From a virus: DNA of 64,000 bases. The stretch lies in the IMG/VR virus record IMGVR_UViG_3300043468_001414, positions 32,664-96,663 of that record, one strand, 5' to 3'. Below the pieces are notes generated by a model. That model searched no databases. It saw nothing but the letters and a program-made list of their open reading frames with translations, and was not told the origin of the DNA. Every line of letters starts with the position of its first letter. The first letter of the stretch is position 1. Below are positions 31,233 to 64,000 of this stretch, piece after piece. Position numbers and translations under genes: made by a program.

Positions 31233-31811
31233 ATGAAAACGATAAAAGTTAAATGGAGTGGCATTCGCCCTCTTGTCATGCACAACGGATTGATGGCTGA
31301 TCCTACCAACCCATTGGTGCGCAGAATTAAAGAAATCACAAGCAAGGGGAGTAAGAAAATGACGGATTCTGATTATGAGGAGCGGGATCGCTTAGAGTGG
31401 GAGGCTGGTTTGTATTGGGATTCGGAAGACGGGCTGATCATGCCCTCCGACAACATCGAGCGCTGCGTGCAGCTCGGGGCGCAGAAGTCTCGAATCGGAA
31501 AAGATGTGCAGGCAGCTGTATTCTGCGCGAATACTCATGTTCCAATTGTTTATGATGGGCCTAAAGATAAAGATAAGCTTTACGATGATCCTCGCTTTTC
31601 TTTGCGGAAGGGCGTGGCGGTGCAAAAGAGCCGAATTATTAGAATTCGGCCAATGATCCCGACTGGCTGGACGATGGCTTTCGACTTGGAGTTTGATGAA
31701 GGCATCGTGAATCCAAAGAATTTGATGAAGGCTATGACGGATGCCGGTTCGCTTGTGGGGCTCGGTGATTGGCGGCCGAAATTTGGTCGGTTCTTAGTCG
31801 AAGAGATTTAA
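31233..31811 (+). CDS. Phage RAMP-like (Cas7-type fold?) protein
   Basis: 192 residues. It starts with a beta strand and IRPLVMHNG, then IMPSDNIERCVQLGAQKS..GK, a FSLRKGVAVQKSRIIRIRPMIPTGW segment and the C-terminal glycine-rich motif GLGDWRPKFGRFLVEEI. I associate this plan with a family of phage early proteins resembling RAMP/Cas7-type RRM folds, where a G-rich loop near the C-terminus is typical. That comparison is by eye and needs structural checking. It lies directly before the hairpin/GGCNN array. Confidence 0.7.
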   Translation: MKTIKVKWSGIRPLVMHNGLMADPTNPLVRRIKEITSKGSKKMTDSDYEERDRLEWEAGLYWDSEDGLIMPSDNIERCVQLGAQKSRIGKDVQAAVFCANTHVPIVYDGPKDKDKLYDDPRFSLRKGVAVQKSRIIRIRPMIPTGWTMAFDLEFDEGIVNPKNLMKAMTDAGSLVGLGDWRPKFGRFLVEEI

Positions 31812-31832
31812 TGGCACGATTTCCCATAGCGC

Positions 31833-32174
31833 GGCTCGGAGGGGCTTGGCAAGGCAAGGCTAGGCACGGCGTGGCAAACACACAGCATCCCTATGGGGGT
31901 GCTGAAGTTTGCTGGGCACGGCTGGGCACGGCGGGGCTCGGCTCGGCAAGGCAAGGCAAGGCAAACACACAGCATCCCATGGGGGTGCTGAAGTTTGCGT
32001 GGCTAGGCTTGGAAAGGCTGGGCCAGGCAAGGCGAGGCAAGGCCTGGCGCGGCAAACACACAGCATCCCGTGGGGTGCTGAAGTTTGCGGCGAGGCAAGG
32101 CACGGAAAGGCTAGGCGAGGTCTGGCCAGGCAAGGCATGGCAAACACACAGCATCCCGTGGGTGCTGAAGTTTG
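31833..32174 (+). repeat. Array of four hairpins separated by GGCNN pentamer runs
   Basis: Four copies of CAAAC-ACA-CAGCATCCC...GGG(G)TGCTG-AA-GTTTG lie at 31875-31911, 31962-31997, 32053-32087 and 32141-32174 (37, 36, 35, 34 nt; only the loop length changes). Both arm pairs are complementary, with one G-U pair in RNA. Before each hairpin is an exact run of pentamers GGCNN: 8, 9, 10 and 10 units ending at the CAAAC. The third base is altered in only four units and the last two bases vary freely. Hairpin starts are 87, 91 and 88 bases apart, so the copies fall in different reading frames. Conservation is therefore at the nucleic acid level. Confidence 0.9.
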
Positions 32175-32200
32175 CTGAAAAAATAAAAACGAAAGGAAAA

Positions 32201-32674
32201 ATGATGGAAAATACAATAGAAAACATGGAGGTCGTAAGGCTTCCGCTTTGGAAAAACTGCTATGAGGAAATGCTGCGAGATGGAGTGGATTATGGTTCTG
32301 CTTATAGCACGGAGTATTTCGAGGAGAGATTGAAGGTGGGGCGGGACAGCATGGCGTTTGGAATGGATATTTCAAAAATCCGAGCGGCATTGCTCTCGCA
32401 TGGGTATTTTTTGAGCGGTAGAGGCCAAAAGGGGGAACAATTTGTGGTGGTGAGGGCTGCGGCGAATGCAGCTGTGATGGAAAACTTTCAAGCTCAAGCA
32501 ATCAAGGCGTTAAAAGCAGGAGTGATCTTGGGGACGAATACCAAGCTCGATGTGCTGACTGATGAGGAACGGAGGAAGCATGAATCGACGCTGGAGAGGC
32601 TGGCGATTCGCGCGGCCTTGGTTTCAAGAAAAATGCCATTGCTCAAAAAGGCTCTTAATTCTTTAGAATCTTAA
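32201..32674 (+). CDS. Conserved phage early protein, function unknown
   Basis: 157 residues from ATG 32201 (a second ATG follows at once) after an AAAGGA site. The frame is open further upstream, but that part is only the repeat array read through. SKIRAALLSHGYFLSGRGQKGEQFVV and GVILGTNTKLDVLTDEERRKHESTLERLAIR recall a family seen beside replication genes of other phages; no function known to me. One base separates its stop from the next gene. Confidence 0.75.
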   Translation: MMENTIENMEVVRLPLWKNCYEEMLRDGVDYGSAYSTEYFEERLKVGRDSMAFGMDISKIRAALLSHGYFLSGRGQKGEQFVVVRAAANAAVMENFQAQAIKALKAGVILGTNTKLDVLTDEERRKHESTLERLAIRAALVSRKMPLLKKALNSLES

Positions 32675-34405: not shown

Positions 34406-35083
34406 ATGCAGCAAAATCAACCAGGGAAATCTCTGGTGGTGGAAATCGCAAGTGCGTGGGGCACTTCGCGAGCCTATGTCTACAAGCTGGCCAAAAAAGG
34501 CTGCCCGGTAGACTCAATCGACGCGGCCAATGAATGGCGAAGCGCAAATGCAAAGCTTGGGGTTGGGTATCGGAGTCGCTCCGCGACACCTTCCCTCTCT
34601 GAAGATGAAGAAGGCGAGGTTGGAATAGGTGCAGGGGTCGCGGAACAACAACCCAACTGGGGTGCGGGGCGGAAGTCTTATTGTAAGACTCGCATTAATG
34701 TTCGCACTATTGAGAAATCTTTGAAGCAAGCGATTGAAATTGAGCGTATGGCTGCTGAGGTTGTTAATGCCGCGCAGGCGAATCCCGAGAAAATGGTTAC
34801 TGCGATTAATGCTTACAATAAAGCGCTTGCGAATCGAATGGAAGCGGAGAAAAAAGTTCTCGAGTATCAGGAGGTTCGCAAGCTCTTGATCCCGATCGAT
34901 GTTGCAAAAGACTTGATTAATAAGGCTTGGCTTCCGCTTTTGGCTCGCCTTCGAAGCGCGCCGAAACGGGCCGCAATGAAAGCAAATCCTTCTGATGATA
35001 CATTGGCTGAGGCGGTCTTCAAGGAGGAGATTGAGTCTGCAATCAAGGAGGGGCAAGATTGCTATGCCGCGGTTTTCGCATAA
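34406..35083 (+). CDS. terS: Terminase small subunit (Nu1-like)
   Basis: 225 residues. The N-terminal HTH (VEIASAWGTSRAYVYKLAKKGCP, ~10-35) is the DNA-recognition domain of Nu1-type subunits. A central coiled region (AIEIERMAAEVVNA; ALANRMEAEKKVLEY) would serve oligomerisation and large-subunit contact. It overlaps the large-subunit gene by 20 bases. An AGTCTTA-TTG-TAAGACT palindrome lies within the gene at 34674 and codes for SYCKTR. Confidence 0.85.
   Translation: MQQNQPGKSLVVEIASAWGTSRAYVYKLAKKGCPVDSIDAANEWRSANAKLGVGYRSRSATPSLSEDEEGEVGIGAGVAEQQPNWGAGRKSYCKTRINVRTIEKSLKQAIEIERMAAEVVNAAQANPEKMVTAINAYNKALANRMEAEKKVLEYQEVRKLLIPIDVAKDLINKAWLPLLARLRSAPKRAAMKANPSDDTLAEAVFKEEIESAIKEGQDCYAAVFA
34674..34690 (+). 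repeat. AGTCTTA-N3-TAAGACT palindrome inside the terminase small gene
   Basis: AGTCTTA / TAAGACT with loop TTG. In frame it codes within KSYCKTRI. The same coding version recurs at 62811 in another gene. Confidence 0.85.
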
Positions 35084-36899
35084 TAAAGAAGTTGTCGATG
35101 CTTTGACATCGGCGATGGTTGCAGCGCTCTCGCAGCCTCCAGAGGTTACGGTTTGGGAGTGGCTTGAAGAAAATGTCACGCTGACCGAGAGAGAGAGCCA
35201 AAGCGAGCCAGGCAAGTTTTCCACGCGCTCTAGGCCGTATATGCGCGAGCCGCTGGAATGTTTCCGTGACAAGCGAGTGACCGACTTGGTGCTTTGTTTT
35301 GGGACGCAAACAGGGAAAACCATGACTGTCATGGGCGGGGTCGGCTATCGCGTCGCGGTAGATCCCATGAACGCCCTTTGGGTGTTGCCGAATCGCGATC
35401 TCGCCAAAAGCTTCTCGCAGAACCGCTGGTTCCCTTTTATCGAAAATTGCCCGCCGCTTAATGCCATGAAGCCACTCGGCAAAGACCGGCATCTTTGGAC
35501 AAGGCTTGAGCAATGGTTTGCTCGCAGCACCCTGACCTGGGTTGGCAGCAACTCGCCCAGCCAATTGGCTTCGCGTCCTGCTGGACTCGTCTGCATGGAT
35601 GAAACGGACAAATTTGAGCTGAAAAGCGATCGCGAGGCTGGGGCGTTGCAGAACGCCGAGGAGCGCACAAAGTCATTCCCCTACCCTCTCCGCGTGAAAA
35701 CCAGCACGCCCACCACGAAGCACGGCCAGATTTGGAGCGAGTTCATGCTGGGCGATCAGAGGTTCTTCTATTTGCCATGCCCCCACTGCGGCACGATGAT
35801 TAAGCTCCTGTGGGGGCAAGTCCGCTGGTGGGAGCATGACGAGAGCGAGAGCAAGACCGATGGGGATTGGGATCTCGAAAAAGTCCGTCGCAATACTTAT
35901 TACCGCTGCCAAGAATGCGAGGGCAAGATCCTCGACGCGCAGAAAACCGCCATGCTCCGGCAAGGCGAGTGGCGTGCCGAGAACTCCCGAGGGCTATTCG
36001 GTCGGCGCAGCTATCACTTGAATTCTCTCTACGCTCCGCTCAAGGAAACGCAGTGGGGCAATCTGGCCGCGAAGTGGCTCATGACCAAGGGCAATCCTTC
36101 CCGCCGCCAAGCATTCATTAACTCCACTCTCGCCGAGCCGTGGGACAATGAGCTTCTGGTCGATGACGAGACGATCTCCATCACGCTCTACGACCGGCAA
36201 GAACTCCCGCCCGAGCGCATTCCGATCGCCACGATCGACGTCCAGGAGAATCACTTCTGGATGGTTATTCGGGCGTGGAGCACTCCGAAAATGGAAGGAG
36301 GCCAGCAGAGCTGGCTTTTGTTTGAGGGCAAGGTCGATACGATTGAGGAGATCGAGCGGCTTGTAGCCGAGCACCATGTCGAGCCACGGCGCGTCGGCAT
36401 GGATATGGCACACAAGCCGAATACCGTCTCCGCGTGGATGGTAAAAAACGGATGGCGCGGCCTGTGGGGTCGCGATAATTCGCAAGGCTACATCCATAGT
36501 GCTGTAGGCGCTCCGAGAGTTTTCAAGGACTACTCGCAAGTCCAGCGCCGCGATCCGCATCTCGGCACCATTTACCAGAACGAAGGCAACGAAAAGGCGC
36601 TATTTCTCTATTGGAGTAACGATCGCATCAAGGATCGTCTCGCTGCCTTGCGGGATAGCGGGCGTTGGCATGTGCATCCAGGGATTTCGAAGGACTATGT
36701 TCACCAGATCAACGCCGAGTCGAAGGAGATCAAGCGATCTCCCGTGACCGGGCGGATTACTTACTACTGGAAGCAAGTCCGTAGGGACAATCACTTGTTC
36801 GACTGCGAGGCCATGCAGGTCGTGATGGCACTTGTCGGCGGTGTTCTGGAGGAAGAGGCGTCTGCTCAAGGGCAGCTTCACTTGACGCCTTCCGCGTAG
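35064..36899 (+). CDS. terL: Terminase large subunit, GpA family
   Basis: 611 residues from ATG 35064, behind a GGAGGGG site and overlapping the small subunit gene. Walker A CFGTQTGKT (~78-86), Walker B LVCMDETDKF (Asp179-Glu180), zinc-type pairs CPHC (~239-242) and CQEC, and nuclease acidic motifs in IATIDVQ, VGMDMAHKP and FDCEAMQVV. This is the DNA packaging ATPase-nuclease of the lambda GpA group (Phage_GPA). Confidence 0.95.
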   Translation: MPRFSHNKEVVDALTSAMVAALSQPPEVTVWEWLEENVTLTERESQSEPGKFSTRSRPYMREPLECFRDKRVTDLVLCFGTQTGKTMTVMGGVGYRVAVDPMNALWVLPNRDLAKSFSQNRWFPFIENCPPLNAMKPLGKDRHLWTRLEQWFARSTLTWVGSNSPSQLASRPAGLVCMDETDKFELKSDREAGALQNAEERTKSFPYPLRVKTSTPTTKHGQIWSEFMLGDQRFFYLPCPHCGTMIKLLWGQVRWWEHDESESKTDGDWDLEKVRRNTYYRCQECEGKILDAQKTAMLRQGEWRAENSRGLFGRRSYHLNSLYAPLKETQWGNLAAKWLMTKGNPSRRQAFINSTLAEPWDNELLVDDETISITLYDRQELPPERIPIATIDVQENHFWMVIRAWSTPKMEGGQQSWLLFEGKVDTIEEIERLVAEHHVEPRRVGMDMAHKPNTVSAWMVKNGWRGLWGRDNSQGYIHSAVGAPRVFKDYSQVQRRDPHLGTIYQNEGNEKALFLYWSNDRIKDRLAALRDSGRWHVHPGISKDYVHQINAESKEIKRSPVTGRITYYWKQVRRDNHLFDCEAMQVVMALVGGVLEEEASAQGQLHLTPSA

Positions 36900-63825: not shown

Positions 63826-64000
63826 TTCAATTAACAAGGGGATTCGCCGTGACATATTCGCGACTCATTCCCTTTCAATTAACAAGGGGATTCGCCGTGA
63901 CATATTCGCGACTCATTCCCTTTCAATTAACAAGGGGATTCGCCGTGACATATTCGCGACTCATTCCCTTTCAATTAACAAGGGGATTCGCCGTGACATA
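63826..64000. repeat. 48-bp perfect tandem repeats (3.6 copies in window)
   Basis: Units start at 63826, 63874, 63922 and 63970 with a 48-base period. They are identical from TTCAATTAACAAGGGG through CATTCCC; the last copy is cut at the window end. It may be an iteron array, a tandem promoter region or a regulatory array for the - strand genes. There are no unique spacers. Confidence 0.9.

What the first reader, a model, noticed from the sequence alone, without database searches (positions are those of the whole stretch)
31833..32174. Array of four hairpins alternating with degenerate GGCNN pentamer runs
Each hairpin (34-37 nt) has two conserved complementary arm pairs (CAAAC/GTTTG and CAGCATCCC/GGGGTGCTG) and differs only in the loop. 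Between them every unit is exactly five bases, GGCNN, with 8, 9, 10 and 10 units and strongly varied NN. Copies are in different frames, so they are not selected as protein. GG every five bases could fold as a two-layer G-quadruplex with 3-base loops, or the NN could be a recognition code. I know no described element of this shape.
Basis: seen in the sequence. Interest (0 to 1): 0.9.

Follow-up and report, generated by a model that had tools for sequence, protein, structure and literature searches.

The report
Phage RNA-guided VIPR guide array
The hairpins and GGCNN runs are a set of four guide RNAs that a phage protein, an early relative of CRISPR proteins, probably uses to find and silence DNA of rival phages; this kind of system (VIPR) was described in a 2026 preprint, and the window holds a new example of it.

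Summary
In detail: four 34-37 nt hairpins, each preceded by a run of five-base units, on the + strand of an uncultivated phage contig. It is not an undescribed element. It is the guide-RNA array of a VIPR system (Viral Interference Programmable Repeat; preprint PMC13142463, April-June 2026). The gene just upstream (31233-31811) encodes a Vipr RAMP protein. It matches the solved SUSP1 Vipr (PDB 36pp; E 2e-32 by sequence, 3e-45 by profile), and its confident model resembles Csm3/Cas7 RAMP proteins. The gene just downstream is a homologue of the gene that follows vipr in SUSP1. Reading each run as YNNGG gives guides of 9, 10, 11 and 10 units, and each hairpin is the invariant 3' tail. The tail is a true RNA structure: across 25 distinct tails 99.7% of pairs hold, with 27 two-sided changes. 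GGCNN arrays are widespread: 79 of 120 viral contigs sampled carry a Vipr gene near the array, 78 on the same strand. No target of the four window guides was found, and none match their own genome. Possibly new: the same tail serves two distant Vipr clades carried by related phages, and one sister guide has a candidate target in a related phage.

The parts
31233..31811 (+). vipr gene, 192 aa RAMP protein
   Evidence: PDB 36pp_D 'SUSP1 Vipr protein' E 2.4e-32 by phmmer and 2.8e-45 by profile; phrog_4652 E 6e-49; AF2 pLDDT 95.9; top PDB folds are Csm3/Cas7-type RAMPs
31811..31829 (+). short leader with a small inverted repeat ATGG..CCAT, conserved in the close relatives L005, L324 and L317; role unknown
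   Evidence: alignment
31830..31874 (+). guide tract 1, 9 YNNGG units; NN = GC TC GG TT AA AA TA AC GT
   Evidence: sequence
31875..31911 (+). tail hairpin of vrRNA 1
31912..31961 (+). guide tract 2, 10 units; NN = TG AC TG AC GG TC TC AA AA AA
   Evidence: sequence
31962..31997 (+). tail hairpin of vrRNA 2
31998..32052 (+). guide tract 3, 11 units; NN = GT TA TT AA TG CA AA GA AA CT GC
   Evidence: sequence
32053..32087 (+). tail hairpin of vrRNA 3
32088..32140 (+). guide tract 4, truncated CGG then 10 units; NN = GA AA AC AA TA GA CT CA AA AT
   Evidence: sequence
32141..32174 (+). tail hairpin of vrRNA 4
32204..32674 (+). probable vap1 (vipr-accessory protein), 156 aa
   Evidence: iterative profile from this gene finds the gene next to vipr in SUSP1 (L250, E 4e-32) and wV8 (E 1e-31), and the neighbour of vipr in L005, L131, L132, L317, L323, L324 and L329

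Best explanation
The locus is a VIPR system of the SUSP1-like kind (type II in the preprint, inferred): vipr, then four tandem vrRNAs, then vap1. Inferred from SUSP1: the region is transcribed through the array and cut near the base of each tail hairpin, giving four RNAs of about 82-90 nt, each with 9-11 YNNGG units followed by a 3' hairpin tail. Vipr subunits coat each vrRNA, the GGY triplets are held by the protein, and the NN dinucleotides pair with double-stranded DNA whose sequence is NN x NN x NN (one base skipped). Binding blocks transcription of a competing phage, satellite or prophage. Shown here: the protein family, the array anatomy, the conserved tail structure, strand linkage and the absence of self-targets. 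Not shown: transcription, processing and the actual targets.
For: Vipr identity: PDB 36pp_D SUSP1 Vipr, single match in the SUSP1 genome at 34% identity, RAMP fold, G-loop motif GxxVGxGDxRP..GRF near-invariant in 50 homologues. Array: GGY/NN units in numbers (9-11) within the published 9-16, followed by an invariant 3' tail. Linkage: of 120 viral contigs found only by (GGCNN)x8, 79 encode a Vipr homologue, 78 with the array on the same strand and all within 1 kb. Tail as RNA: 25 distinct tails, 99.7% of cells paired, 6 of 12 pairs changed on both sides, 27 such cells, 0/500 shuffles; 36 distinct tails of this shape follow a GGY tract in 23 loci. Accessory gene homologous to SUSP1's next gene. 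Best match of each guide to the phage's own 96.7 kb is no better than shuffled guides. Mechanism: PMC13142463.
Against: No target was found for any of the four window guides: 8-unit seeds scanned over IMG/VR gave 112, 13, 34 and 18 hits whose flanking units match at chance level. No RNA data exist for this phage. The tail is a two-part hairpin, whereas the published SUSP1 tail includes a pseudoknot; the preprint's supplement could not be read, so whether this tail type is already listed there is unknown.
Confidence: 0.95

Rival explanations
1. G-quadruplex array: GG every five bases folds into two-layer quadruplexes separated by hairpins, acting on transcription or translation.
For: Regular GG spacing with three-base loops.
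Against: The third base is kept as a pyrimidine (C here, mostly T in SUSP1), which a quadruplex does not need; the tracts sit next to a RAMP gene in 79 of 120 loci.
Confidence: 0.03
2. Decaying microsatellite with embedded hairpins and no function.
For: Five-base tandem units; hairpin copies of slightly different length.
Against: NN varies freely while GG and Y stay, covariation in the tail, and tight strand-specific linkage to vipr.
Confidence: 0.01
3. The array belongs to a VIPR system but regulates the phage's own or its host's genes rather than rival elements.
For: No rival target found for the four guides; VIPR can act as a repressor.
Against: No match above chance in the phage's own 96.7 kb; published clades mostly target satellites and prophages; a sister guide matches a gene of a related phage better than its own copy.
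Confidence: 0.15

Closest known systems
VIPR of Escherichia phage SUSP1 (type II; PMC13142463; PDB 36pp)
   Same: Vipr protein (34% identity over 190 aa), homologous gene next to vipr, several vrRNAs of GGY/NN repeats with a 3' structured tail.
   Different: Y is C here and mostly T in SUSP1; the tail is a hairpin with an ACA/AA internal loop rather than a pseudoknotted tail; all four vrRNAs lie head to tail between vipr and vap1, whereas SUSP1 has one upstream and three downstream.
Class 1 CRISPR effectors (Csm3/Cas7)
   Same: RAMP fold and glycine-rich loop; variable guide followed by a hairpin handle.
   Different: No CRISPR array or cas genes seen at the locus; the guide is non-contiguous; Foldseek TM only about 0.4-0.55.
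phrog_4652 (unknown function)
   Same: The Vipr protein is a full-length member (E 6e-49).
   Different: The PHROGs entry has no function; it can be renamed Vipr.

Membership tests
VIPR | Vipr RAMP protein (~20 kD) with RRM core and G-loop | tested here: met
   PDB 36pp_D E 2.4e-32; RAMP fold
VIPR | vrRNA tract of 9-16 YNNGG units, GGY kept, NN hypervariable | tested here: met
   9, 10, 11 and 10 units; exceptions are three A in the Y place, and one T (allowed) instead of C; NN differ in sister arrays
VIPR | invariant structured 3' tail after each tract | tested here: met
VIPR | vap accessory gene | tested here: met
   downstream gene homologous to the SUSP1 neighbour of vipr; that this SUSP1 gene is the one named vap1 is inferred
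VIPR | encoded on a virus | tested here: met
   IMG/VR virus record, terminase genes at 34406-36899
VIPR | vrRNAs expressed and bound by Vipr | not testable with these tools
   needs RNA data
VIPR | 1-nt-skip targets in competing elements | tested here: inconclusive
   no target for window guides; one candidate for a sister guide
CRISPR-Cas class 1 | repeat-spacer array with contiguous spacers and several cas genes | tested here: not met
   five-base units; no Cas protein among the Pfam and PHROGs results for the neighbouring genes
known Rfam RNA | match to any Rfam 15 family, including hammerhead ribozymes | tested here: not met
   no match at gathering score in the window or at E<=1 in the array

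The most novel reading that the evidence does not exclude
VIPR is modular. The same vrRNA tail (down to the loop: 34 of 35 bases identical between L317 and L029) is used by two Vipr clades that are very distant in sequence and carried by related phages that share neighbouring genes at up to 82% identity. Vipr genes would then be swapped under a shared guide-RNA scaffold, and the tail may be read by something other than the variable part of Vipr.
Probability: 0.5. Interest if true: 0.55.

Novelty: new member of a known kind. Interest (0 to 1): 0.42.

Why it matters
The locus is an independent, sequence-only recovery of a very recently described RNA-guided system. It adds a tail family with strong covariation, shows how common GGCNN arrays are in environmental phages, gives a function to phrog_4652, and offers four guides with a defined decoding rule to test. 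If tails are exchanged between Vipr types, the tail is a portable part of the system.

Tried and rejected
Target search by exact 8-unit seeds with one skipped base over IMG/VR for all four guides: extension scores at chance; the single 18/18 match of guide 1 (L312) is about what 18 seed hits give by chance. All-against-all guide search in about 2.9 Mb of fetched DNA: no clear excess of the 1-nt skip over 0 and 2 once window guides and low-complexity guides are removed. Own genome: no self-target. Guide 3 against 18 related virus records with up to 3 mismatches: none. NN composition against codon positions: NN is closest to codon positions 1-2 read in the sense direction (KL 0.087 against 0.13-0.28 for the other registers), which fits skip = wobble, but a purine preference after C would look the same, so it is not counted as proof. 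Host: no prophage with this tail in 84,980 genomes (four pattern hits are chance); terminase and integrase give no close named relative. Rfam: nothing. Promoter scan: nothing.

Full report
What is there. The array at 31830-32174 has four units, each a run of five-base repeats followed by a hairpin. The hairpins are 37, 36, 35 and 34 nt. Neither the hairpins nor eight GGs at five-base spacing occur in shuffled sequence. Every tract lies 5' of its hairpin on the + strand. The first begins 19 bases after the stop codon of a 192-aa gene, and the last hairpin ends about 30 bases before the next gene. The window is 64 kb of a 96,663-base IMG/VR virus record.

What it is. [quoted passage not shown] It describes VIPR: a small phage RAMP protein, Vipr, with vrRNAs of 9-16 YNNGG units and an invariant 3' tail, in which NN dinucleotides pair with DNA and one target base is skipped between them. 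Membership was then tested directly. The upstream gene matches the solved SUSP1 Vipr (PDB 36pp) over its whole length and the single homologue in the SUSP1 genome. Its AlphaFold model (pLDDT 95.9, pTM 0.89) has Csm3 and other Cas7-like RAMPs as the best PDB matches. The glycine-rich loop is near-invariant among 50 homologues. The downstream gene has no Pfam or PHROGs match, but an iterative profile links it to the gene next to vipr in SUSP1 and wV8, so it is probably vap1.

How general it is. Of these, 79 encode a Vipr homologue, 78 with the array on the same strand and all within 1 kb. Spacers between tracts vary: hairpins, short words such as GTTCAG or ACCGCA, or four-base GGCA steps.

The tail. 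Nineteen IMG/VR contigs carry the CAAACACAC..GTTTG tail, nearly always directly after a GGY tract. On 25 distinct tails the two-helix structure is paired in 99.7% of cells, with two-sided changes at 6 of 12 pairs (27 cells); no shuffle reaches this, and sliding the arms destroys it. Relaxing the outer arm gives 36 distinct tails in 23 loci, with outer arms such as TACAC/GTGTG, TTCAC/GTGAG and CTAAC/GTTAG. The hairpin is therefore kept as RNA structure. Thermodynamic folding gives the same hairpin in all four window units.

Two Vipr clades, one tail. The tree of 101 Vipr proteins places the tail-bearing loci in two separate groups: the window's clade, with vap1, and a clade around L029/L316 on a very long, fully supported branch, in which no vap1 homologue was detected. 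Each of 15 records checked has only one Vipr. Yet tails of the two clades can be almost identical (L317 and L029 differ at one of 35 bases), and the viruses share neighbouring genes, one at 82% identity. This suggests exchange of Vipr genes or tails between related phages. In L131 and L323 the order is vipr-vap-array, in the window and L005 vipr-array-vap, so the array also moves.

Targets. Four scans of IMG/VR with 8-unit seeds found only chance-like matches, and the phage's own genome has no match above shuffled guides. One sister guide is suggestive. L005 guide 1 matches L132 at 19 of 22 positions inside a 268-aa gene, with the skipped base at the codon wobble position and one mismatch synonymous. 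L005's own copy of that gene matches only 17 of 22. By my estimate such a match is expected about 0.04 times among the longer guides of this family, so it is a candidate, not a proof.

Mechanism. By homology: the array is transcribed, cut near the tails and loaded into Vipr; the NN code then finds a target and blocks its transcription. Shown here: protein family, anatomy, tail structure, linkage and lack of self-targets. Inferred: transcription, processing, the target class and repression.

Verdict. The window adds a new member, a covariation-supported tail family and the two-clade tail sharing.

Noticed in passing
L005:1489-1543 and L132:5282-5314: Guide 1 of the sister array L005 matches a gene of the VIPR-bearing phage contig L132 at 19/22 with wobble skips; L005's own homologue matches 17/22.
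   Followed up: partly
L029, L316, L319, L320, L322, L326-L328, L330, L331 versus the window clade: The same vrRNA tail with a very distant Vipr (188 aa) and no detected vap1, in phages sharing neighbouring genes with the window clade.
   Followed up: partly
L135 (phage wV8) 2259-2316 and 3652-3709: Repeats annotated 'DR_4' by the depositors flank the wV8 vipr gene and appear to lie in its vrRNA arrays.
   Followed up: no
L136, L137, L009, L008, L006: Vipr homologues in named phages, annotated hypothetical: Mycobacterium phages LittleE gp34, prophiBWHA-1 gp43 and Quico gp57, Gordonia phage Trine gp41, Cyanophage Cy-LDV1 g34; Quico and Trine have GGCNN runs beside them.
   Followed up: partly
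window 31769-32674: The array is open in one frame through to vap, as in L005, L132 and L317; GGCNN repeats rarely make stops, so this is probably incidental.
   Followed up: no
window 31811-31829: A short leader with inverted repeat ATGG..CCAT between vipr and the first tract is conserved in L005, L317 and L324.
   Followed up: no
window 63826-64000: Perfect 48-base tandem repeat, at least 3.6 copies, running off the end of the window.
   Followed up: no
window 32204-32674: Weak PADLOC match of the vap1 candidate to SduA/DUF4263 (E 0.0013), probably chance.
   Followed up: no
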